A stretch of DNA of 49,389 nucleotides, from the IMG/VR virus record IMGVR_UViG_3300021394_000002, positions 1 through 49,389 of that record. One strand, given 5' to 3'. A program made the position numbers and the translations under genes. The notes under the pieces were generated by a model. That model was not told the origin of the DNA. It ran no database searches and worked only from the letters and a program-made list of their open reading frames with translations. The stretch comes from a virus. This document shows positions 1 to 49,389 of the stretch, one piece after another; the stretch's first letter is position 1, and the number at the start of each line of letters is the position of its first letter.

Positions 1-13
1 GCTCTTCCGATCT
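1..13. other. Illumina adapter remnant
   Basis: The first 13 bases, GCTCTTCCGATCT, are identical to the 3' end of the standard Illumina TruSeq adapter. This is sequencing residue, not phage DNA. The true left end of the contig therefore starts at about position 14 and has no proven biological meaning. Confidence 0.93.
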
Positions 14-34227: not shown

Positions 34228-34573
34228 TTGTCCCTGTGCAGATTATTTTTTGTGTTAGCACTTGTTAGCTGCGACAAAAATAAACATACGTTTACCTTAT
34301 GTCAAAGGCGAATACCGATACTGTGTGAATTATGTTAATGAAACGAGAATCATAAAAAATAAAGAAACGTTTATTTTTATATAAAAATACCGTGTTTACC
34401 GGCGGCCAATGAATTATTGTTTTAATAGAACGCAAGGCAGTTGGTTAATAAATAAGCAATGGCGCGGCTTTTAACACCGCCGCTACTGGGTTACACTTGA
34501 ATGGCTTGAATGGCTGACTCCAGGCAGAACAAGCAGAGGGGCGAGCCTGGCGGATCGCCCCTCACCCTTTCTA
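34228..34573. other. AT-rich gap without a gene
   Basis: No frame here is convincing. It holds the promoter side of the leftward gene at 33976-34227, an inverted repeat of AAAAATAAA and TTTATTTTT around a 6-base loop at 34355-34378, and a short TAAAC-ATAC-GTTTA inverted repeat near 34283. The strong A+T content compared with both sides suggests a regulatory or foreign segment. Confidence 0.5.
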
Positions 34574-34759: not shown

Positions 34760-35011
34760 TCAGGGCTGGCCCCGTTCCTGCCACCAGCGCCACCAGAGCA
34801 GTGGCGGCAGCAGGTATTCCCGCATGGGGCGTGTTTTCAGGTAGCCGTTGATCACTATATCCCGGCAAAAGCTCCAGGTGAGCAGGTTGACGTAAATGGT
34901 GCCCGGCGATATCACCAACGGGCCGAACACCCCCCACCCCAATATCATGGCCAGCACCAGGCCGCCGTGCAGGTAGTTTAACCATCGAATGGTGCGCTCA
35001 GGGTTTTTCAA
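34760..35011 (-). CDS. Small membrane protein, third gene of the par operon
   Basis: An 83-residue protein with two predicted membrane helices (residues 14-36, HGGLVLAMILGWGVFGPLVI, and a weaker one near 38-52) and a Trp-rich basic end (PPLLWWRWWQERGQP). Its start overlaps the end of parB by 14 bases, so it should be co-translated with ParA and ParB in the lysogen. Membrane proteins made from a prophage are often superinfection-exclusion factors; that is a guess from context. Confidence 0.62.
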   Translation of the reverse strand: MKNPERTIRWLNYLHGGLVLAMILGWGVFGPLVISPGTIYVNLLTWSFCRDIVINGYLKTRPMREYLLPPLLWWRWWQERGQP

Positions 35012-35948
35012 TGTCGCCCCCTTGCTCCAGCTGCGCCAGCAGGCCGGCCATTTCTTCCATCAGCCATTCCCGTTGTTCCAGGCTCAACCCCTGGCCGGCT
35101 GACACCGACACCCGGCCACCCTTGAGCGTGATCTTGCCGTGTTTGAAGTTACGCACCACCGGCGTTACCACCGGGGCCGGGCTGACGGTTGCCGCCCAGT
35201 GCATCAGGAACGCCAGCATTTCATCGTCGGGGTCGCGCTGATCGTCCGGGTTCGGGTGAAAGTCGATGGCGGCCAACAGCAGCGCATCCTGCTGGTCCGG
35301 CGCCATGCTGGCCCAGCGATCATGGAGGGCCGACCCCTGCGCCGGGGTCAGGTAGCCGGGCTGGCTGAACAGCAACATGATCTCTTTGGGCAGCTGGCTG
35401 GTGTCGATACAGCGGCTGATGGTGCGCCGGCTGACCCGTTCGCCCAGATCCTGCAGGTGGGTTTCCAGCGCCCGCTGGCTGCCCAGTTGTTTTTCCAGCC
35501 GCTGGTATCGCTTGCCCTTTTCCCATGCACTGGGCGGGTTATAGCGGTTGCCGATGGCGCTGTACCAGTCCATTTCTGCGTCGGTCAGATCGGCCACCAG
35601 TAGGTTATACGGCCGTTCTTTCAGTATGCAGCCAGCCAGCCGCCGGCTGCCGTCGCCCACTTCATACATGCCGTTTACTACCCGGCCCCGCGCCCATTCG
35701 GTGTTGCCTTGTTCGCCCAGGGTGCTGGTAATGTCTTCCAGCGCCCGGGCCGACAGCAGATCCGCGCACCGCTCATTACCACCCCATACCCGAGTCTTTG
35801 CCTCAACATCGGCCGCCGGTATCCGCACCAGCCGCCAGGTGACGGTTCGGCCGCTATAAATGGTTTCTTCAAAGGTGCCGGGTTCCCCGGCCGCTTTCAT
35901 TGCCGACAGGCGCTGATCCAGCCTATCCAAACTGTTCAATACCGACAT
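34998..35948 (-). CDS. parB: ParB/SopB-like partition protein
   Basis: A 316-residue centromere-binding protein. Residues about 50-130 form the ParB/Srx-like N-terminal domain, with GDGSRRLA (residues 98-105) in place of the GERRxRA nucleotide-binding box, as in SopB-type proteins; RVWGGNERCADLLSARALED (53-72) precedes it. The HTH lies near 166-190 (LGERVSRRTISRCIDTSQLP). The C-terminus is a probable dimerisation domain. It follows parA by one base. It should bind inverted-repeat centromere sites and, with ParA, segregate the linear plasmid prophage. The dispersed 19-bp palindromes are its best candidate sites. Confidence 0.88.
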   Translation of the reverse strand: MSVLNSLDRLDQRLSAMKAAGEPGTFEETIYSGRTVTWRLVRIPAADVEAKTRVWGGNERCADLLSARALEDITSTLGEQGNTEWARGRVVNGMYEVGDGSRRLAGCILKERPYNLLVADLTDAEMDWYSAIGNRYNPPSAWEKGKRYQRLEKQLGSQRALETHLQDLGERVSRRTISRCIDTSQLPKEIMLLFSQPGYLTPAQGSALHDRWASMAPDQQDALLLAAIDFHPNPDDQRDPDDEMLAFLMHWAATVSPAPVVTPVVRNFKHGKITLKGGRVSVSAGQGLSLEQREWLMEEMAGLLAQLEQGGDIEKP

Positions 35949-35949
35949 A

Positions 35950-37101
35950 TCAATTCCCCCATTTTGGGTTTACCAGTGTTTCCATAATTTCCGTAAACAG
36001 CCCCTGCCAGATGGCCATTGCGTTGTTCCAGCTGGCCCGACTGCTGCGCTGCCCCCGATCTTGCTCGAACACGGTACGCAGCCGGAGCTGGGCCTTGCCG
36101 ACTTCTTCCGTGTTTTTTAAGGTATTGACCAGCACCTTTGATCCCCATGCCTGGCGGATATCCCGCGCCACTTCCTGACTGCTGGAGCCGGGGCTGCTGC
36201 TGACCTTGCTGATCAGCACCCGCACATCGGGGATGCACCAGAGCTGTGATTCAGGCACCGCCGCCGCCGCCCCACGCAACAGGCTGAACAGCTGTTCAGT
36301 GCTATCGGTATCGTGCAGCTCTGCCGGCGAGGGAATGATCATGGCGTCGGCCGCGAAAATCTGCGCTATGGTGCCATCGGCCAGGTTGGGGGCGCCGTCT
36401 ATCAGTACCAGATCGTAATTGTCTGACACGGTGGCGATACCGGCCCTGAGCATCAGGTGGTGCGGGTATTTAATGCCAGTCTGCTGGTCCAGCTCCCGGT
36501 CGATGCGCTGCAGCGCCTGACAGCCGGGGATGATATCAAGCCGGGGCCAGTAGGTGGGGCGTATGGCGTAGTCCAGGCTATCTTTCTGGCCGAACATGAA
36601 AGGTAGAACCGTGTCCTGTTCGGTCAGGTTGCCGGGATGGACGCCGAAGTAATGCCCGGCGGTGCCCTGGGGATCAACGTCAATCAGCAACACCCGGTAG
36701 CCGTGCATGGCCGCCCACTGGGCGAAGTGAACCGCGACCGTGGTTTTGCCGGCGCCGCCCTTGTTTGAGACCACCGCCAGCGTGACCGCTTCACTGGACT
36801 CAGGCCGCCAGGGATGGGTGCCGAACACCGACCGCATGGTATCGATCTGTTCGATGGTATAGCCCAGGCGGCGGCCCTTGGCGTCACGGTCAGCCTGCGC
36901 CAGCCGCCCAGCTTGCTCTGCCTTGATTATGGCCGTCTTGCTGACGCCCACCAGGCTGGGGGCTTCATTGATACCCCACCGCCGAGTTATCGCCCGGCCT
37001 TCACTTTCCACCAGCCCCAGCTTGCGCTTGATAATGCCGTTCCGCATTTCCTGGCTGCTGGTTATGCAGTCGTCAAACAGCTTTAACAGTTGCTCTTTCA
37101 T
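35950..37101 (-). CDS. parA: ParA/SopA-like partition ATPase
   Basis: A 383-residue protein of the type Ia ParA family. Residues 1-105 hold an N-terminal HTH-containing domain (APSLVGVSKTAIIKAEQAGR) that in SopA/P1 ParA autoregulates the operon. The deviant Walker A is KGGAGKTT (Lys114 and Lys119), followed by VLLIDVDPQG (Walker A') and LVLIDGAPNL (Walker B). The start at 37101 follows GGAGTAAGGAAC and is preferred to the open frame up to 37221. It binds DNA non-specifically when ATP-bound and pulls ParB-bound plasmid copies apart. A dispersed palindrome lies 136 bp upstream. Confidence 0.94.
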   Translation of the reverse strand: MKEQLLKLFDDCITSSQEMRNGIIKRKLGLVESEGRAITRRWGINEAPSLVGVSKTAIIKAEQAGRLAQADRDAKGRRLGYTIEQIDTMRSVFGTHPWRPESSEAVTLAVVSNKGGAGKTTVAVHFAQWAAMHGYRVLLIDVDPQGTAGHYFGVHPGNLTEQDTVLPFMFGQKDSLDYAIRPTYWPRLDIIPGCQALQRIDRELDQQTGIKYPHHLMLRAGIATVSDNYDLVLIDGAPNLADGTIAQIFAADAMIIPSPAELHDTDSTEQLFSLLRGAAAAVPESQLWCIPDVRVLISKVSSSPGSSSQEVARDIRQAWGSKVLVNTLKNTEEVGKAQLRLRTVFEQDRGQRSSRASWNNAMAIWQGLFTEIMETLVNPKWGN

Positions 37102-37236
37102 GTTCCTTACTCCAGGCATCAAAGGTGTCTGAATGGTGTACCACAAAACACTATTCAGCAAGAAAAAAAGTAAACAAAGGTGAAAAAAGGTAAACCACGA
37201 CGACCGGCCAACCGTTTCCACTTGGCCCCGTAAGAG

Positions 37237-37255: not shown

Positions 37256-37637
37256 CACCGTCAGGCAGCTCTGCCTTGCAGAAGATGCACAGCCCCGGCA
37301 CGGCAACCCTGCAAGCCTGGCACTCACTTCCGGCCCTTGTGTGGCGCGGCTTTGCGGCATAAATGAGGCTACCAAAGGGGAAAGGGAGAGAGGGGTAGAG
37401 TAGAGGCGGTGGCACAAAATCAAGAGATCGCCGCCGCTTAGGGTACACACATGCAAGATAGCCAAAGATAGGGGCGGTGCGGCGTCACGGTCAAAATCGG
37501 CAGGCAAAATATAAATACTATCTATGTACGATTGTCAGGGTTTCGGCATGAGCTTCACTCCATATCGTACACACACCAACGTACACACTGCAAGGATACC
37601 CCTATAAGGTACACACTACAATATTATGGGGCACACA

Positions 37638-37671
37638 GCACCCTAATAATAAAATTTTATTATTAGGGTGC
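37638..37671. other. Telomere resolution site (tel palindrome)
   Basis: A perfect 34-bp palindrome: GCACCCTAATAATAAAA followed by its exact reverse complement, centre between 37654 and 37655. It extends imperfectly outward for about 15 more bases per side. It lies 185 bp upstream of the protelomerase gene, the arrangement of telRL and telN in N15. Cutting and rejoining by protelomerase at the centre would give two covalently closed hairpin ends, converting the circular phage DNA into the linear plasmid prophage. Confidence 0.85.
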
Positions 37672-37741
37672 ATAGATGCCATATTAAGCATAGTGGTGTC
37701 ATGGGTGGGTGTGTACCCTCTGGTGTGTACGATAAGCCGCC

Positions 37742-37770
37742 TTGTCAGCCTTGTTTTTATATATTACAAT
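37742..37770 (+). promoter_or_regulatory. Promoter of the protelomerase gene
   Basis: TTGTCA (37742-37747), a 17-bp spacer and TACAAT (37765-37770). Start would be near 37777, on top of a GTGTGTAC-type repeat (37771-37778), with two more between it and the start codon. Binding of protelomerase or another protein to these repeats could repress the promoter. Confidence 0.62.
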
Positions 37771-37855
37771 CTGTGTACGTTGGTTTTGGTTAAAAACTTG
37801 CCGTGTGTACGCTGTATCCTATAATGTGTGTGTACTTAACCTGGAGATAAAAAAC

Positions 37856-40003
37856 ATGGGATCATCAAGGAAAGTGGACTTGCAACAGATAGCCGAAGAT
37901 TTGCACAAAGAGGTCATGCACATCGAGAGCCTGGACGTTGCCCAGTCAGAGAAAACCCGCCGCCACCAGCGGGCCGCCAAAAAGGTGCTGAACCTGCTGT
38001 ACCTGGACCGCCGCCGCTACAAGGGCAAGTTGAAAGAAAACCGGATCACCCTGAACACCTTTATCAGTTACCTGACCCGGCTTAGAAAAATGCTGGCTGA
38101 CTTGGGGCTTAGGCATCATCTGCTGGACAGAGAGATCGACCGCATGACCAAACGCTACCCCCGCCATGCCGAGCTGGCGGCGACCCTGGCCGACTTACCA
38201 CCGAAAGAGACATTCGAGGCCAAGCGGCTGGCTCAGGAACAGCTGGCCATCGAGGTTGAGGCCCAGGATGCTCTAAACCGGATCGCCTGGGATAAGCCGG
38301 ATGCACAGAAGAAGCTGAAAGCCATGATGACCCAGTACCCAACACTGAAAGCCTGGCTGGTGCCGCTACGCGACGAGGCGACCCGCGCCACCGCATTGCG
38401 GGATATCCACCTATATCTGGACGAGGCCGACGCCTTTAAGCGGGATCTGGTCGATTTGAAAGTGGACCATGAGGCTATTGTGGCGCTGAGAATACCGGCC
38501 GATCTCAAGGAAGACAGGGCCAAGGCGTCGGGCAAGGCGCTGATGAAAAAACAGCGGGCGCGGTTCCACCTGAACTATCCGGTATACATGGAAAAAGTAA
38601 TGTGGGCGCTGACCCAGCCCCACAACCAGAGGCCGGATGGCGGTTGTGACTGGGACTATAACCCGCTGGTGTTCGGCTTGTGTGCTGCCACCGGTCGCCG
38701 GCCGGTTGAGGTGCTGCTGACGGGCCATTTTGAGCGAGTAGACCGGGAGCGGTTGCGATTTTCTGGCCAGGCGAAAAAGCGCGGCAAGGCCGCCGATTCG
38801 TATGTAATTTACTCCCTGGTCGATACCAATACCGTGATGGCGGCATTCCAGGCGCTGCGGTCCCTGCCCTACACCGCCGAGCTGCACCAGCTGGAGGTTG
38901 AGAGTAAATATGATATTCGCACCACGGCGACCATGATCAACAATCGCCTGTCTGCGCCGCTCAATAGCCTGGCCCGCAAGGTGTTCGCGCCGGACGGCCG
39001 CCGGGTTTTCTATGACACACGGGCCGTGTACGCCGCTATCTGCGCCCAGCGATACCTGGAAACCGATCCGCGCTGGAAGTCGGACGACGGCAGCTGTAAC
39101 CGGTCGGCCTTTACCACCGAGCTATTGGGCCACGACGACCCCAACGCCCAGCTGGCGTATGAGTCGGTAAAACTGGACAGCTACCGGCCTTATCTGCCGA
39201 GCGCCATCAAACACAAAGCCAAGGATCGCTTGGCCGAGCTGGAAAAGCTGGATGATGAAATGCCGGATCTGGCCAAGGGCATGGCGGCGGTGGCTATCCA
39301 TGATTGGGTAAAGGACAGGGTGAAAGCCGATCCGTCTGTCACTATCACTCAGTCACTGATCAGCCGGGAGGCCGGCGGCAACCGCAACACCATCAAGCGT
39401 TATCTGGAGGTGGTCAGCGATGCCCTGGGCATTACCCGTGACGAAAAAACCGGGTGGGTAAAGGACGAGTTCGATCTGATATTGGAAAAGCCAACGGTTG
39501 ACTGGAAGCTCAAGCAGGCCGACGAGGACGAGCTGGACGCTGAACCCGAGGGCGAAGACGTAGACGAAGCCGAGGACGAAGCCGAGGACGAAGCCGAGGA
39601 CGAAGCCGAGGACGAAGCCGAGGCGACACAGGCAACCCCATTGCCCACCAGCACCCCGGAATGGAAGGGTAAACCGGCGTTTAAATTCCAACGGCTGGCC
39701 AACCAGCAATGGCAGGTGGGTATCCATGTGGGTTACGCCAGTCAGACCGTCACGGTGCAGGGGGCCAACCAGATGGCGGCAGGCCGCGCCGCCTGGCAGC
39801 AATGGCTGGCGCAATGGCAGCAGGTGCCGATCCACCATACCGCTGACGCGCTGAATGGCAAGAAGGCGCATAAAGTCAGCGCCGGTCTGCCCGATGGCCA
39901 GTATATCGAGGTGGTCCAGGCTGGCGCCGAGGCCGAGGCCAGGCGCACCCTGAGCAATGACATAAAGCGAGCGGCGGCCGTCTGGCAAAACCTGGGCAGC
40001 TGA
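37856..40003 (+). CDS. telN: Protelomerase (hairpin telomere resolvase), TelN/TelK family
   Basis: A 715-residue enzyme that makes the closed hairpin ends of the linear prophage by a tyrosine-recombinase-like cut and rejoin reaction. Catalytic positions fit those of N15 TelN/PhiKO2 TelK: Arg281 in CAATGRRPVEVLLTG, Lys307 in SGQAKKRGKAAD, Arg389 in YDTRAVYA, His426 in LLGHDDPN and nucleophile Tyr435 in AQLAYESVKL (His to Tyr spacing of 9 as in TelK). N-terminal helices (1-250) form the muzzle-type DNA clamp. The protein is about 80 residues longer than TelN/TelK; the extra C-terminal part has (DEAE)5 at 570-589 and a domain starting PAFKFQRLANQQWQVGIHVG. The start at 37856 follows CTGGAGATAAAAAAC. 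Confidence 0.95.
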   Translation: MGSSRKVDLQQIAEDLHKEVMHIESLDVAQSEKTRRHQRAAKKVLNLLYLDRRRYKGKLKENRITLNTFISYLTRLRKMLADLGLRHHLLDREIDRMTKRYPRHAELAATLADLPPKETFEAKRLAQEQLAIEVEAQDALNRIAWDKPDAQKKLKAMMTQYPTLKAWLVPLRDEATRATALRDIHLYLDEADAFKRDLVDLKVDHEAIVALRIPADLKEDRAKASGKALMKKQRARFHLNYPVYMEKVMWALTQPHNQRPDGGCDWDYNPLVFGLCAATGRRPVEVLLTGHFERVDRERLRFSGQAKKRGKAADSYVIYSLVDTNTVMAAFQALRSLPYTAELHQLEVESKYDIRTTATMINNRLSAPLNSLARKVFAPDGRRVFYDTRAVYAAICAQRYLETDPRWKSDDGSCNRSAFTTELLGHDDPNAQLAYESVKLDSYRPYLPSAIKHKAKDRLAELEKLDDEMPDLAKGMAAVAIHDWVKDRVKADPSVTITQSLISREAGGNRNTIKRYLEVVSDALGITRDEKTGWVKDEFDLILEKPTVDWKLKQADEDELDAEPEGEDVDEAEDEAEDEAEDEAEDEAEATQATPLPTSTPEWKGKPAFKFQRLANQQWQVGIHVGYASQTVTVQGANQMAAGRAAWQQWLAQWQQVPIHHTADALNGKKAHKVSAGLPDGQYIEVVQAGAEAEARRTLSNDIKRAAAVWQNLGS
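39563..39622 (+). repeat. 12-bp tandem repeat, five copies, in the protelomerase gene
   Basis: GACGAAGCCGAG is repeated five times head to tail without a mismatch, encoding (DEAE)5 in the acidic linker. Such a repeat can gain or lose units in frame. Confidence 0.95.
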
Positions 40004-40054: not shown

Positions 40055-43000
40055 TTACCCCAGTTTTAACGCCAGCTCAGGAGGTAGCCCCGCCCTGATC
40101 CTGGCGTCCCGAGATCCGAGCGCCAACAGCACACCGTTTTCATCCAGCAGGCCGTCACGAACGGCGGCTTTTTCCTCATAGGTAAGGGCTGAAAGCAGGT
40201 CATGGAGGGCGATTTTTAACCGTCTTCCGACTTTTCCGAGCAGGTAAGAAACCCCGGCAGGCCGCGCCACCACTGGGCTTGAGGGGCGATCCACGATCTT
40301 ATCTTTCTCTATAAGATCATCAGAAAAATCGTGGATCGTTTCGGACACCAGATCAGACCGTTCAGATCCGCCCGCCGCCAGCTTAATATCGTCATAGGCG
40401 CTCACACCTGAGTGGGTTCTTTTCTGGTGGATTTGGTGCATGTTTTCCCACGACTCAGGCTCAATGCTCCAGACCGTCGAACCGTCACCGGTGCGGCGTG
40501 ATTGGCGAGCTTTTACGGCGGTCAAATTCAGCTTTTCCATGATGGCCTTGAACATATCGGCCCCGGCCTTTTTGCCGCGCACGGGTGGGCACCAGGGCGC
40601 GTGAATGGTCAGGTAGTCGGCGTTGGCCTGCAGCAGCGCCAGACCGGCCTGTAAACCGCGCTGAGTGGCCACCCCTGCCCCGGTGTTATAATCCACCCCT
40701 ACCGCCGCCATATACTCCCGTAGCAGGCGCTGGCTGCGGCTCAGGTACTGCCGGGTAGATACCGGCACCCCATTGGTCGCCTCTAGGGCATCCAGGCTGC
40801 TGGCGCGTTCTGTGGGCATCTGCAGCAGCTCGAACCGCTTAACGTGGGCCAGGGCGCCGTCACGCAGCCAACAAACGGATTCTTCCGTCACCGGCTGCAG
40901 GAGCAGGTTTTCGATATTCCAGCGGTTCAGCTGCGCCCGCTCATCCTGGCTGATGTGCGAACTTTCCATTAACTGCTGACGCTGTTCGTCGGTGGCGGTG
41001 GGATTGGTCAGGTGGCGCTCGATATCTTCCTGTTTCAGTAATTCCCCAATGACCTTTTTCGCAACCTTGGCATTGGCGATCATTTCATCGGCGTGTTCCA
41101 GCGCCATTGGCTCCACCCGGTATTTATCGGCCATCAACTGCAACAGCATGGTGTTGGCAAAATCGTTGCGGGCGGCGTTTTCCTGGGTCAGCAGGTTAAT
41201 CCGTAACCGGTCGAATTCCAGATCATCAGAGCTGACGACCAACTGACCATCTTCATTCACACTGATGGATAATGCCTGATCGTGTTCGGCCAAGCCCGCC
41301 AGGGCTGCCCGCCACATGGCGGCTTCACTGGTTTCCCTGAAATTCACCGGGCTGGTCAATCCCAAAATAAAGCGGTTGGCGGTGCGGTCCCGGCGGATCA
41401 TCTGTACCGCATCGGATGGCGATATCACGCCACGAAACAGGCCGTAGTGAAGATCGAAATGCTGGGTCACAATGGACACCCCGGAGCTGATCGCCGGCGA
41501 GTAGATCACCCAGTCGTATTTTTCCACATGGCCATCGGGATCGGCGTTAAACGCCTGCACCTTGGCATCAAAGGCTTTCGAGTCTTGGGAGATAAACAGC
41601 CCTTTGGTGTGGGGATATTTTTCTTCCAGCAACCGCTGCAGCTTGGCGCCCTCATCGGCGCTATCGTCGGCCACCAGTACCTTTTTTCCCTGGCCCACTT
41701 GGGCCACCACATCATCGAATACCGCATTCAGATCGCCGTACAGTATCGTTTTGTCGGAAAAATCGGTGTCCAGCTCCACCACATGAATGGGGGTATCGTC
41801 CCCGCGCTCTGCACGGATGCGTTCGGCAAATTCGACCACCGAATCGTTGGCGTCGGCATCCACCATCAGCACCTGACTGGCGTTGACCGCGCACCCTTTC
41901 AGCCGGTTGTATACCGCCAGCGGCTGGGCCATGGTGCCGCCGTTGGTGATGGAGCGGAGCATTTGACTGGCCTCATCGAGCGCCAGCAGATCCAGGCGCT
42001 GCAGGATGCGGCCGAACTGGGGCTTGTTGATCGAGTTGATACAGCAGGCTAGCTTTTTCATGCCGGACAGGTGCGCCATTTCTGCGTCTTTGTAGTGCAG
42101 GATATCGAGGGCGTCACCGGGCATGGTTGCCAGCAGGGCCACATCGGCGGCGTCGTCTGGATTGATTTTCGACAGCTTGGCATGGCCATCCTCTACCAGC
42201 GTGACCCGGTGGACAAAGGAGGCCGCCCGCTCTGCCTGCCAGATCATCGGCCGCAACAGGTTTTTGGATTTACCCGAGGCCATGGGCGCCCGGACTATCA
42301 CCAACCCCTGCAGCTGGCGCACGAAATCATAAACCCCATCATCGATCACCGTTTTTTCGATTCGGTGGTAATGAATATGGGCGGGGCGCTGGGCCGGATC
42401 GGTGATACGGGCGCTGAACGAACGGAAAGCATGGGCTTCATGCAGCCGTTCGTCGAACCGCTTATTGGCCAGCCAGATCAGCTTTTGCCAGTCGATGGGC
42501 AGCCGGTGCTGTTCAACCACGGTTTTGACCGCTTCCATGATCTGGCGGCCGTTGCGAACAAAGGGGAAGCCGCGCATACCGGCGGCAATGGTGGCCATGG
42601 CCTGGCGCTGGGCGTCTTTGTGGCTGGCGGTGGCCAGTTTCAACAACCCCAGCTCGAACGGATCGCGGGGCAGCTCCAGCAGGTTGGTTTTGGCCCTGAG
42701 CTGATCGGCCACTTCCTGCAGGCCACGGCGGTGGCCCAGGGCCACATCATTGAAATCGGTGGGCTGGCTGACCGCATCGGCCTGGGTTACGTCCGGCAGT
42801 CGGTGCTTGATTTTCGGGTATTTTGCGGCCAGCGCATAGGCGGTGTTGACGCCTTTGTTGCCCTTGCCTTCCTGTTGTTTCCAGCAGTCGTTATCGGCCA
42901 GGTTCACCAGCTCCAGATCCGGGTGCTGGCTCAGGTATTTTTCGATCACTACTTCCAGCTGACCGGCATCCAGGCAGACGATCACGGCGCATTCGCCGTA

Positions 43001-43885
43001 TTGTTTGGTCAGGTACTGCTGATGGGCCAGAAAGGCGGTGGCGCCGGTGGCCCAGCCCTCACAGGTATAGATGCGGTCGGCGCTGGACAGGTCGCCTATG
43101 ATGGCATGGGCGCCGGTATCCACCTTGTTCAAACCAAAAGTGAAATCCTTATCGGTTTTTTCCCCGCTGGCGCGGGCGAACGGTTCGGCATAGATGCGCT
43201 GGATGCCGACAATTTCCGGCAGCTGCAGGAAATTGTCTAATTTTTCGGAAGAATACAACGGAATGGCCAGATAATGGCCATTCTTGTTGTGGCCGGTTTT
43301 GATCCCGGCACAGTGGGGCAGGCTGCCCCACACCTGTTTTTTGCGGAGGTACGGGTGATCCTGGGCGTCGGCGTCCTGGTGATAGCCGGCGATATCGGCC
43401 AGCCGCGCCTGTTCCCGGCGCTCCCGTTCGGCGGCAGCCTTGGCGGCGGCCTTGGCTTCCCGCGCTGCCCGGGCATCCATGCGCTGTTGTTGCTTCTGGC
43501 GCCAGCTATCATCTGCGACAAAGCCGCCACCTTCCAGCTCATAGAGCCGCTTGAGGTCTTCATAGCCGTTCAGCACGAATTCGGCGGTGCCTTCACCCCG
43601 GCGGCTGATGGTGATCACCGGGTACTCAATGCCGTTGCGGGCCGTCTTGAAGTCGGCCCGGACACCGGCGGTTTTTTCACCCTTGCGGGTGAAATAGCGG
43701 TTATGGTTCAGGCCGATGCTGGCGCCGTCCCATGCCAGCCGCTTATCCACGGCGTCCCAATTTATGCCGTGCTGAGCCGCTTCCTGGGCAAAATCGGCAT
43801 AGAGGCGGTCATACAGGTGGCGACCGGAGCCACCCAGCGCCTGGTAGAAGTCTTGCAGTGTTCGATTGTTGTTATTTTTCGGCAT
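40055..43885 (-). CDS. repA: RepA-type replication protein (TOPRIM primase-helicase)
   Basis: A 1276-residue protein like N15 RepA (about 1320), which alone supports replication of the linear plasmid. Residues about 265-350 are a TOPRIM domain (CEGWATGATAF with Glu276, then VIVCLDAGQLE and LADNDCWKQQ). Residues about 525-860 are a helicase core: Walker A APMASGKSK (Lys539), Walker B LALDEASQM (Asp637-Glu638) and an arginine-rich motif AVQMIRRDRTANR. The start at 43885 follows AGAGGCCAAA and is preferred to an upstream ATG at 43927. In N15 the replication origin lies inside repA; that may hold here. A dispersed palindrome lies inside the gene. Confidence 0.93.
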   Translation of the reverse strand: MPKNNNNRTLQDFYQALGGSGRHLYDRLYADFAQEAAQHGINWDAVDKRLAWDGASIGLNHNRYFTRKGEKTAGVRADFKTARNGIEYPVITISRRGEGTAEFVLNGYEDLKRLYELEGGGFVADDSWRQKQQQRMDARAAREAKAAAKAAAERERREQARLADIAGYHQDADAQDHPYLRKKQVWGSLPHCAGIKTGHNKNGHYLAIPLYSSEKLDNFLQLPEIVGIQRIYAEPFARASGEKTDKDFTFGLNKVDTGAHAIIGDLSSADRIYTCEGWATGATAFLAHQQYLTKQYGECAVIVCLDAGQLEVVIEKYLSQHPDLELVNLADNDCWKQQEGKGNKGVNTAYALAAKYPKIKHRLPDVTQADAVSQPTDFNDVALGHRRGLQEVADQLRAKTNLLELPRDPFELGLLKLATASHKDAQRQAMATIAAGMRGFPFVRNGRQIMEAVKTVVEQHRLPIDWQKLIWLANKRFDERLHEAHAFRSFSARITDPAQRPAHIHYHRIEKTVIDDGVYDFVRQLQGLVIVRAPMASGKSKNLLRPMIWQAERAASFVHRVTLVEDGHAKLSKINPDDAADVALLATMPGDALDILHYKDAEMAHLSGMKKLACCINSINKPQFGRILQRLDLLALDEASQMLRSITNGGTMAQPLAVYNRLKGCAVNASQVLMVDADANDSVVEFAERIRAERGDDTPIHVVELDTDFSDKTILYGDLNAVFDDVVAQVGQGKKVLVADDSADEGAKLQRLLEEKYPHTKGLFISQDSKAFDAKVQAFNADPDGHVEKYDWVIYSPAISSGVSIVTQHFDLHYGLFRGVISPSDAVQMIRRDRTANRFILGLTSPVNFRETSEAAMWRAALAGLAEHDQALSISVNEDGQLVVSSDDLEFDRLRINLLTQENAARNDFANTMLLQLMADKYRVEPMALEHADEMIANAKVAKKVIGELLKQEDIERHLTNPTATDEQRQQLMESSHISQDERAQLNRWNIENLLLQPVTEESVCWLRDGALAHVKRFELLQMPTERASSLDALEATNGVPVSTRQYLSRSQRLLREYMAAVGVDYNTGAGVATQRGLQAGLALLQANADYLTIHAPWCPPVRGKKAGADMFKAIMEKLNLTAVKARQSRRTGDGSTVWSIEPESWENMHQIHQKRTHSGVSAYDDIKLAAGGSERSDLVSETIHDFSDDLIEKDKIVDRPSSPVVARPAGVSYLLGKVGRRLKIALHDLLSALTYEEKAAVRDGLLDENGVLLALGSRDARIRAGLPPELALKLG
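43313..43331. repeat. Dispersed palindrome, copy 13 (inside repA, centre G)
   Basis: GTGGGGCAGGCTGCCCCAC, a perfect palindrome within the repA coding sequence, read there as VWGSLPHC on the minus strand. Keeping a perfect palindrome inside a conserved gene suggests selection for the DNA site. Confidence 0.9.
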
Positions 43886-43943
43886 TTTGGCCTCTATTTT
43901 TGTTATCAGAGGGCCATCAATAATCAAATTTGCATATTCAAGC

Positions 43944-45807: not shown

Positions 45808-45823
45808 CCATAAGAGATCCGTG

Positions 45824-46864
45824 ATGCGATTTTTCCAGAATGTGGCCATTAAATACCACATACAACCGGCTTTATTGCCGCAAACAGAAAGCGCCTGGCT
45901 GGCTATTATTGAGCCGCTATTATTTACCGAACCCCACCCCACTGTGGTCAGTAAACAGGGATTTTTTCCGACAGATTTTGACGGGAAACCCCTGTTGATT
46001 GCAAACCGGGCGGTGTTTTTGCGGGTGATCAATTACAAAAAAGAGCTGCCTAAAACCCAATATCTGGATGCCTATAAAGAGCAGGAGCAGGCCGAAATGA
46101 CCCGGCTTGATCGGCCATTATCGGTGGATGAACAACTGCGGCTGAGTGAAAAAGTCACACTGGAATTATTACCATCGGCGCCACCCAGCTGGACGCTAAC
46201 GCAAATGCTGGTTGATCTGGATAACGGGCTGGTGATGGTGGATGCCAGCAGTGATCAAGCGGTGGATCTCTGTTTACAGCAGCTGCGACTGGCGCTGGAT
46301 ACCCTGCCGGTGAAACCGCCCTACTGTGACGGTGACGCTGCCGGCGTGACCCTGGCGAAATCGGCCCGGCTGGTGGAGAAAAAAAACGAGTCTGGCAAGG
46401 TTAACGGCCTGGGCTGGCAGCTGCCGTTGCCGGCTTTCTTTGGTCACGGTGATGCGCTGCAGCTACGCCATGCCAGGGAAAAACATCAAAAAAACCGCTC
46501 TGCCAATATCCCGTTTGACGACGAGAGCATTCAGAGGTTACTGAGTGGCGGTTTTGTGGTGCAGGAAATAGGGCTGCACCTGGAACATTACATGGAATTC
46601 AGGCTGACCGACAAACTGACCCTGAAACGGGTTAAGTGGGATCTGGCCGAAGAACTGGAGCAGTTAATCCCCAACGGTGATGATGACAACCCGACATTGA
46701 GTTATCAGCTGACATGCTTGGCGCTGATGGTGCAGTTGCTGCGCTATGTGATCCCGGCCCTGCTAAAGCATTGCCAGTGTGTTGATAGCGGGTTATGGCT
46801 GACCGGTTTTGCTGAGCCGGAGAGCCTGGCGACATTGATTGAACAAACCAAAAAGGCGCTGTAA
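45824..46864 (+). CDS. rdgC: RdgC-like recombination-associated protein
   Basis: A 346-residue protein matching RdgC (303 in E. coli). It begins MRFFQNVAIKYHI (E. coli MLWFKNLMVYRLS) and has LLPSAPPSWTLTQMLVDLDN then GLVMVDASSDQAVDLCLQQL and LDTLPVKPP, aligned with the RdgC core [24 protein letters not shown]. RdgC forms a ring around DNA and limits RecA filament use. In a phage it could protect linear replication forms or restrain recombination. ATG 45824 is chosen over GTG 45821 because it matches the family N-terminus. It shares one base with the next start (TAATG). Confidence 0.85.
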   Translation: MRFFQNVAIKYHIQPALLPQTESAWLAIIEPLLFTEPHPTVVSKQGFFPTDFDGKPLLIANRAVFLRVINYKKELPKTQYLDAYKEQEQAEMTRLDRPLSVDEQLRLSEKVTLELLPSAPPSWTLTQMLVDLDNGLVMVDASSDQAVDLCLQQLRLALDTLPVKPPYCDGDAAGVTLAKSARLVEKKNESGKVNGLGWQLPLPAFFGHGDALQLRHAREKHQKNRSANIPFDDESIQRLLSGGFVVQEIGLHLEHYMEFRLTDKLTLKRVKWDLAEELEQLIPNGDDDNPTLSYQLTCLALMVQLLRYVIPALLKHCQCVDSGLWLTGFAEPESLATLIEQTKKAL

Positions 46865-48259: not shown

Positions 48260-49321
48260 ATGAGCCAAAAAAGCCACCGTGCCCGGAGCTACCTGCAGAA
48301 ATACAGCGGTGAAGCCGGCGCCCTTATTTATCCACTTATTAACGGAACCCACCAGATAGGGAAAGCAAACTGGCCAGCATTTGTTTATGTTCCATCTGCC
48401 ATCATTCCCCCGATGTTGGGGCAGACCATGCCGCCCGATATTATTGAGGGACTGCAGGAGCTGAATAGTATTGAGCGAACCTTGATCATGGAAACCATGC
48501 TGACCATGGCCACCTGGCGCATAACTCAGGGTATTTACCGCTTTGATCCTGCCGTGTACCAGGCGGTAATAGACACCCCGCTCAATGGTGATATCCCCGC
48601 CAGCATCCTGACCCGCCTACCAGAGTGGTGCGTTTACGTCGAAACGCCGGGCCTAATCACCATAGGAAAACACGGTGAACCCATAGCCATTTACGGCGCC
48701 TGGGCTAGACTGTCCAGCGGCGGCCAGACCAGCGATTCGGACCTGATTGATTTGGTGCTAGGTTTGGATACCGATGCCGAGCGTGACGGCGGCGCGATCT
48801 CCCATCAGTTGATCCCGCTGCAGGGCACCCTAGAGCAATCCATTCGCCAGCTACCCAGCAGCAATATTGACGAGAAAAATAAAGAGCGGGCGTATCAGGA
48901 AATTCTGAAACATACCCGGCCGATACTCAACCTGTTGATCTATTTGTGTAACACCACGGACTACCAGGGCGACCGGCAACCAGCCAACCCCCAACCGAAG
49001 CGAACCCGCCGCCATGGCGAAAAACTGTTTCCGGCCAACACCACCACCACCTGGAATGTAGGGGTCAGAATGGGGTCAGCCCTACGCCGGGCTTATGCCA
49101 GTGAATCAACACCCAGCACCAGCGAACCGACCGGCCGCCATGTGCGGCCGCACATCAGACGCGCCCACTGGCATACATTCCTGTCCGGGCCACGCCTGGA
49201 TGACGAAGGGCAGGCAATACCAGCAGATCAGCGAAAACAAAGTGTGCGCTGGATGCCGCCGATTCCGGTTAACCTGGACGAGCCCGAGGAATTACCGGCC
49301 ACCATTCATCCAGTAAAATGA
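48260..49321 (+). CDS. acrVA2: AcrVA2-family anti-CRISPR homologue
   Basis: A 353-residue protein closely matching AcrVA2 of Moraxella phages (about 322 residues) in its hallmark segments: TWRITQGIYRFD (85-96), LTRLPEWCVYVE (117-128; AcrVA2 has LPDWCVYVD), DLVLGLDTD (164-172) and the C-terminal RPHIRRAHWHTFLSG (296-310; AcrVA2 RPHIRRGHWHGYWQG) followed by VRWMPPIPVN. AcrVA2 blocks type V-A CRISPR by acting on Cas12a production, binding the nascent N-terminus and causing loss of its mRNA. Homologues are widespread on mobile elements, also where Cas12a is not known, so the target here is unproven. The ribosome site CTGGAGTACAAC precedes ATG. Confidence 0.85.
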   Translation: MSQKSHRARSYLQKYSGEAGALIYPLINGTHQIGKANWPAFVYVPSAIIPPMLGQTMPPDIIEGLQELNSIERTLIMETMLTMATWRITQGIYRFDPAVYQAVIDTPLNGDIPASILTRLPEWCVYVETPGLITIGKHGEPIAIYGAWARLSSGGQTSDSDLIDLVLGLDTDAERDGGAISHQLIPLQGTLEQSIRQLPSSNIDEKNKERAYQEILKHTRPILNLLIYLCNTTDYQGDRQPANPQPKRTRRHGEKLFPANTTTTWNVGVRMGSALRRAYASESTPSTSEPTGRHVRPHIRRAHWHTFLSGPRLDDEGQAIPADQRKQSVRWMPPIPVNLDEPEELPATIHPVK

Positions 49322-49322
49322 G

Positions 49323-49389
49323 ATTGAATTCATAAATTAAATTGGATTCATAAATCAAATTGGTTTCATAAATCAAATTGGATTCAAAA
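49323..49389. repeat. 18-bp tandem repeat at the contig end
   Basis: The unit ATTGGATTCATAAATCAA occurs 3.7 times: 49323-49340 (two changes), 49341-49358 (reference), 49359-49376 (one change) and a partial 49377-49389. It begins just after the AcrVA2 homologue and runs into the contig end, so the true array may be longer; assembly probably stopped here. Its function could be iteron-like, regulatory or structural. Confidence 0.9.

What the first reader, a model, noticed from the sequence alone, without database searches (positions are those of the whole stretch)
37638..37671. Telomere resolution site with an unusual all-AT centre
A perfect 34-bp palindrome lies directly upstream of the protelomerase gene. 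Its central 20 bp (AATAATAAAATTTTATTATT) are only A and T, unlike the alternating CG-containing centre of the N15/PhiKO2 site. It is the predicted point where the phage DNA becomes linear.
Basis: partly seen in the sequence, partly recalled or inferred. Interest (0 to 1): 0.8.

Follow-up and report, generated by a model that had tools for sequence, protein, structure and literature searches.

The report
Phage telomere site with A/T-only centre
This DNA palindrome is almost certainly the spot where a phage enzyme cuts and folds the DNA into two closed hairpin ends; its A/T-only centre, and a changed amino acid in the enzyme's active site, make it an unusual variant of a known system rather than a new one.

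Summary
Confirmed. A perfect 34-bp palindrome lies at 37638-37671 (dyad 37654|37655). It is by far the longest perfect palindrome in the window, and its A/T-only core is 22 bp, not 20. It sits 184 bp upstream of a full-length TelN/TelK-type protelomerase (715 aa), in the N15-type order sopB-sopA-tel-repA. The closest known relative, Aeromonas pHm21, has a 54-bp palindrome in the same place with the shared core CCNAATAATAAA-N/N-TTTATTATTNGG. It is almost certainly the telomere resolution site. Known resolvases cut 6 bp apart (literature), so the predicted refolded spacer is AAATTT.

The "unusual" claim survives a survey: of 31 distinct half-sites from related phages, 29 have C|G at the dyad; only this site (AAATTT) and VP58.5 (TAATTA) have A|T. 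A/T-rich telomeres are not new in general: Borrelia has them.

No biochemistry or read data were available. New variant of a known kind.

The parts
37638..37671 (.). Perfect 34-bp palindrome: predicted telomere resolution core (telO-like), dyad 37654|37655
   Evidence: shared core and position with pHm21
37644..37665 (.). A/T-only 22-bp centre TAATAATAAAATTTTATTATTA
   Evidence: longest A/T run in the window
37652..37657 (.). Predicted 6-bp spacer AAATTT between the two scissile phosphates
   Evidence: inferred from the universal 6-bp stagger stated in PMC3558466
37629..37641 (+). Left outer-arm element GGGCACACAGCAC (L3-like copy of the array motif); no convincing counterpart in the right arm
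   Evidence: left P 0.013, right P 0.55
37443..37450 (+). GTACACAC array copy, left side
37567..37574 (+). GTACACAC array copy, left side
37581..37588 (+). GTACACAC array copy, left side
37609..37616 (+). GTACACAC array copy, left side
37709..37716 (-). GTACACAC array copy, right side (opposite orientation)
37723..37730 (-). GTACACAC array copy, right side
37771..37778 (-). One-mismatch array copy GTACACAG, right side
37803..37810 (-). GTACACAC array copy, right side; overlaps a promoter-like site
37828..37835 (-). GTACACAC array copy, right side
37742..37770 (+). Promoter-like site for tel (TTGTCA-17-TACAAT); a second one at 37798-37825 (consensus match only)
37856..40003 (+). Protelomerase gene, 715 aa; R282, K307, Y386, R389, H426, nucleophile Y435; acidic linker about 549-595 and an extra C-terminal region
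35950..37221 (-). SopA/ParA-like partition ATPase
34998..35948 (-). SopB/ParB-like partition protein
40055..43927 (-). N15 RepA-like replication protein (47% identical to the pHm21 CyRepA1-family protein)

Best explanation
The palindrome is the telomere resolution site of an N15-type linear phage-plasmid. Two protelomerase monomers bind the two halves. Each Tyr435 attacks one strand 3 bp from the dyad (stagger 37651/37652 and 37657/37658), leaving self-complementary 6-nt AAATTT overhangs. The strands fold back and are resealed, giving two covalently closed hairpins and a linear prophage. The A/T-only spacer is a lineage-specific variant read by a Tyr-for-Lys enzyme. The flanking inward-pointing GTACACAC array (4+4, plus a degenerate copy) is an expanded set of L3/R3-type elements, likely extra protelomerase binding sites that help load the enzyme, protect the ends and/or autoregulate tel. 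Shown here: palindrome, enzyme family and catalytic residues, synteny, shared core with pHm21, array. Inferred: cleavage, stagger position, hairpin product, array function.
For: Pfam ResT-TelK_cat 4e-23, TelK_stirrup 5e-18, TelK_N 3e-14, muzzle 2e-5. AlphaFold model's best PDB match is TelK 2v6e, E 5e-25, then TelA and ResT (model confidence moderate). Catalytic R282, K307, R389, H426, Y435 align with the family. pHm21 tel is 41% identical over 98%, with a 54-bp palindrome sharing AATAATAAA/TTTATTATT at the same distance from the dyad. Palindromes lie upstream of tel in more than 70 related loci. In several relatives (e.g. L016, L019, L024, L057) the assembled sequence is an inverted duplication centred exactly on this dyad, as hairpin read-through gives. 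N15-type gene order sopB-sopA-tel-repA. The array holds 8 of the 9 GTACACAC copies in the window, switching orientation at the palindrome, with 0.9 expected in the whole window; matching arrays in pHm21 and N15-type loci.
Against: No cleavage or read data. The window contig runs straight through the site, so at least some sequenced molecules were joined there (expected for virion or circular DNA, but it does not show resolution). The right arm lacks a clear outer element. The spacer AAATTT has no precedent in the survey, and TelK and TelA are known to fail to form hairpins on some or most foreign spacers tested (PMC3558466), so a dead site cannot be excluded by sequence.
Confidence: 0.94

Rival explanations
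1. The palindrome is an operator or other regulatory site for divergent transcription of sopA and tel, not a resolution site.
For: It lies between divergent genes and weak promoter-like matches on the - strand touch it.
Against: Relatives with upstream DNA carry their resolution site exactly here, and no second candidate palindrome exists in the window; the core matches pHm21's site.
Confidence: 0.03
2. It is a transcription terminator hairpin. Similar A/T palindromes in unrelated A/T-rich contigs (L118, L119) look like terminators.
For: L118 and L119 match the core pattern without any protelomerase nearby.
Against: The terminator scan finds none at the site; the flanking genes point away from it, so nothing needs terminating; the palindrome is loop-free and perfect.
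Confidence: 0.01
3. It is a former resolution site that has lost function by mutation at the centre (C|G to A|T).
For: 29 of 31 half-sites have C|G, and foreign spacers can block hairpin formation in TelK and TelA (PMC3558466).
Against: The change is symmetrical and the palindrome is otherwise perfect; tel is intact; VP58.5 also has A|T; Borrelia telomeres are very A/T-rich (PMC12958805) and ResT tolerates varied spacers on type 2 telomeres (PMC4499125).
Confidence: 0.03

Closest known systems
pHm21 (Aeromonas veronii Hm21, NZ_CP059397) protelomerase and 54-bp palindrome
   Same: Same clade (100/99), 41% identity over the whole length, Tyr at the K380 position, shared AATAATAAA core, inward CATACACC arrays, collinear phage and plasmid genes
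   Different: Spacer AACGTT rather than AAATTT; longer perfect palindrome with the outer element in both arms; array motif CATACACC rather than GTACACAC
N15 / phiKO2 telRL with TelN / TelK
   Same: Position upstream of tel, gene order, CCC block 10-14 bp from the dyad, outer CACACA element, flanking degenerate repeats (L1-L3/R1-R3)
   Different: Spacer CGCGCG; Lys380 instead of Tyr; about 31-32% identity
VP882 / phiHAP-1 / Pseudomonas and Vibrio telomere phages
   Same: Protelomerase with palindrome upstream; A/T-rich arms in Vibrio sites
   Different: Spacer TACGTA, Lys at the active-site position
VP58.5 (VHML group)
   Same: The only other surveyed site with A|T at the dyad (TAATTA)
   Different: Very distant enzyme (24%), Arg at the K380 position, arms not A/T-only
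TelA (Agrobacterium) and ResT (Borrelia)
   Same: Tyr at the K/H position (PMC3558466); Borrelia telomeres are very A/T-rich (PMC12958805)
   Different: TelA lacks muzzle and stirrup; chromosomal or plasmid telomeres, different sites; TelA spacer TCATGA

Membership tests
TelN/TelK-type phage protelomerase | Catalytic ResT-TelK domain with R, K, R, H, Y residues | tested here: met
   R282, K307, R389, H426, Y435
TelN/TelK-type phage protelomerase | N-terminal, muzzle and stirrup domains | tested here: met
   (muzzle at 25.4 bits, just under its 27-bit cut-off); TelK is the best structural match
TelN/TelK-type phage protelomerase | Lys at the TelK K380 position (common, not strictly defining) | tested here: not met
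   Y386 in window and Tyr in pHm21, Lys in all other surveyed enzymes except VP58.5 (Arg). TelA and ResT, also resolvases, have Tyr (PMC3558466), so this marks a variant and does not exclude membership
Telomere resolution site (telRL) | Perfect or near-perfect palindrome of about 28 bp or more just upstream of tel | tested here: met
Telomere resolution site (telRL) | Degenerate repeats of an outer element flanking the core | tested here: met
   N15 comparison in PMC12624138. Right outer element weak
Telomere resolution site (telRL) | Cleaved 6 bp apart by the cognate enzyme to give closed hairpins | not testable with these tools
   needs purified protein or long reads
N15-type telomere phage | sopAB, tel, repA and tailed-phage structural genes on one element | tested here: met
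N15-type telomere phage | Prophage is a linear plasmid | not testable with these tools
   only one assembled contig, joined across the site

The most novel reading that the evidence does not exclude
The window and pHm21 define a clade of TelK-shaped protelomerases that switched an active-site Lys to Tyr (as in TelA/ResT) and, together with this, relaxed or changed the spacer rule, so that the window's enzyme refolds an A/T-only spacer with no pyrimidine-purine step by a refolding route different from TelK's. Co-evolution of residue 386 and the spacer is suggested by two members only.
Probability: 0.25. Interest if true: 0.6.

Novelty: new variant of a known kind. Interest (0 to 1): 0.46.

Why it matters
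How protelomerases force 6 bp of duplex into hairpins is debated (TelK bending versus TelA/ResT guided refolding), and spacer requirements are strict but differ between systems. A TelK-type enzyme with a TelA/ResT-type Tyr and an A/T-only spacer, plus a sister (pHm21) whose spacer differs at one position per half, is a natural swap experiment. It also adds an enzyme with a new target to a class used to make closed linear DNA.

Tried and rejected
Exact 34-bp palindrome in viral contigs: none. Close relatives of the enzyme by window-only or window+pHm21 peptide patterns: none. Looser palindrome patterns: only the Hm21 draft contig and two unrelated terminator-like hits in 35% GC contigs without a protelomerase. 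369 genomes of one class: no hit beyond the seed genome. Considered the adapter remnant at window 1-13 as a possible cos end; left unproven, because the other end does not carry the same sequence and the part of pHm21 held has no match. Considered the Hm21 draft contig that stops at the palindrome edge as hairpin evidence; a perfect 54-bp palindrome can break a short-read assembly in any case, so it is not used. Survey bias: the scan patterns asked for [KY]D[TS]RA or a nearby motif, so enzymes with other residues, and perhaps other A|T-centred sites, are undersampled.

Full report
What is there. At 37638-37671 the window carries a loop-free, perfect 34-bp palindrome, GCACCCTAATAATAAAA|TTTTATTATTAGGGTGC. 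The next-longest perfect palindromes in the window have 9-bp arms, and the longest arm seen in Markov-shuffled versions was 11. Its centre is an A/T-only run of 22 bp, the longest in this 58% GC sequence. As single-stranded DNA it folds into one hairpin (-13.2 kcal/mol, z -7.8), as does the pHm21 site. It lies between a leftward sopA-like gene and a rightward protelomerase gene whose ATG is at 37856.

The enzyme. The 715-aa product matches four Pfam families of the TelK architecture (the muzzle match is just under its cut-off) and 37 phage records by tblastn, which are telomere phages or carry protelomerase genes. The AlphaFold model (mean pLDDT 75) has TelK 2v6e as best solved match (E 5e-25), then TelA and ResT. 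R282, K307, R389, H426 and the nucleophile Y435 are all in place. One position stands out. Where TelK has Lys380 (KDSR), this enzyme has Tyr386 (YDTR). Among the surveyed enzymes only pHm21 shares Tyr; VP58.5 has Arg; all others have Lys. TelA and ResT have Tyr at this position, topoisomerases commonly Lys and tyrosine recombinases His (PMC3558466). In the tree the window and pHm21 form a clade (100/99) inside the Lys enzymes, so a Lys-to-Tyr change on that stem, convergent with TelA/ResT, is the simplest reading. The tree tool warns that both branches are long, so placement deeper than the pair is less certain.

The nearest relative. pHm21 of Aeromonas veronii is 41% identical over 98% of the enzyme, 47% in the replication protein, and has the same gene order through terminase, portal, capsid, tape measure, ParB/ParA, tel, repA, repressor and RdgC. 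Upstream of its tel is a 54-bp perfect palindrome ATCACACACCGAGTCCCAATAATAAAC|GTTTATTATTGGGACTCGGTGTGTGAT. Both sites read CCNAATAATAAA towards the dyad at the same distance. Within that core they differ at N and at the dyad pair itself: A|T here, C|G in pHm21.

Is the centre unusual? I compared the palindrome upstream of tel in all fetched relatives. The 31 distinct half-sites give six predicted 6-bp spacers: TACGTA 13, CGCGCG 13, CACGTG 2, and one each of AACGTT (pHm21), TAATTA (VP58.5) and AAATTT (window). The dyad is C|G in 29 of 31. The A/T run outward from the dyad is 0 in 29 sites, 3 bp per half in VP58.5 and 11 bp per half here. It is not unprecedented across all hairpin telomeres: Borrelia telomeric regions are described as exceptionally A+T-rich (PMC12958805), and ResT tolerates different spacers at type 2 telomeres (PMC4499125). 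By nearest-neighbour sums AAATTT (-4.9 kcal/mol) is a far weaker duplex than CGCGCG (-11.0), with only TAATTA (-4.0) weaker in this set.

How it probably works. All known protelomerases cut 6 bp apart (PMC3558466). Applied here, the cuts fall after 37651 on one strand and after 37657 on the other, and the AAATTT overhangs fold back into two hairpins. TelK and TelA cut some foreign spacers without forming hairpins (same source), so the match between this enzyme and this spacer is the interesting and untested step.

The flanks. GTACACAC occurs nine times in the window, and eight of these lie within 37443-37835: four on the + strand left of the palindrome and four on the - strand right of it; 0.9 are expected in the whole window. 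A similar inward-pointing array, with its own motif, flanks the site in pHm21 (CATACACC), N15 and a Citrobacter relative (AACACAAT) and others; not every relative shows a significant one (PY54, VP882 and several Vibrio sites do not). In N15 such copies are the L1-L3/R1-R3 motifs, with a 310-bp natural target, suggested to recruit several TelN molecules; TelN also shields hairpins from Mre11-Rad50 (PMC12624138). The innermost copy falls inside the palindrome arms in pHm21 (both arms, P about 0.015) and N15, but only in the left arm here (P 0.013 left, 0.55 right). The right-hand copies overlap or lie beside promoter-like sequences for tel, which fits autoregulation. The array's function is inference.

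What is not shown. No cleavage, no reads. The contig runs through the site, so the sequenced DNA was at least partly joined there, as virion or circular DNA would be. Assemblies of several relatives are inverted duplications centred on the homologous dyad, which is what hairpin read-through produces, but none is from this clade.

Verdict. A telomere resolution site (confidence 0.94), a new variant of a known kind. The novelty lies in the AAATTT spacer together with the Tyr-type active site in a TelK-architecture enzyme.

Noticed in passing
1233, 6237, 8425, 8464, 8673, 15953, 15992, 16026, 34574, 37237, 40008, 43313, 47917: About 13 dispersed copies of the near-palindrome GTGGGGCAGCCTGCCCCAC, mostly between genes (0.03 matches expected); pHm21 has about five similar TGGGGCA/GTGGGGC copies. 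Candidate N15-like scattered centromere for the SopB-like protein.
   Followed up: partly
1-13: The contig begins with GCTCTTCCGATCT, the end of an Illumina adapter: an assembly artefact, or possibly a sign of a natural DNA end there.
   Followed up: partly
49300-49389: The contig ends in short tandem-like repeats of ATTCATAAATCAAATTGG, probably where assembly stopped; the genome may be incomplete there.
   Followed up: no
39502-40003 (protein residues about 549-715): The protelomerase has an acidic, predicted disordered linker and an extra alpha/beta C-terminal region shared with pHm21 and partly with Vibrio enzymes but longer than in N15 TelN.
   Followed up: no
45821-46864: Phage-encoded RdgC-like protein, also present in pHm21 at the same place.
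   Followed up: no
34370-34389: Second A/T-only run of 20 bp with an 18-bp palindrome TATTTTTATATAAAAATA downstream of the sop genes.
   Followed up: no
L016, L019, L024, L057, L060, L084, L091: Public plasmid and viral contigs that are large inverted duplications centred exactly on the telomere dyad: probably hairpin read-through left uncorrected in assemblies, some labelled circular.
   Followed up: partly
L107: A Halomonas-phage-like protelomerase contig filed under the cyanobacterium Spirulina subsalsa, probably from an associated bacterium.
   Followed up: no
L012: VP58.5 enzyme has Arg at the Lys380 position and an A|T dyad (TAATTA): a third active-site type with a third kind of centre.
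   Followed up: no
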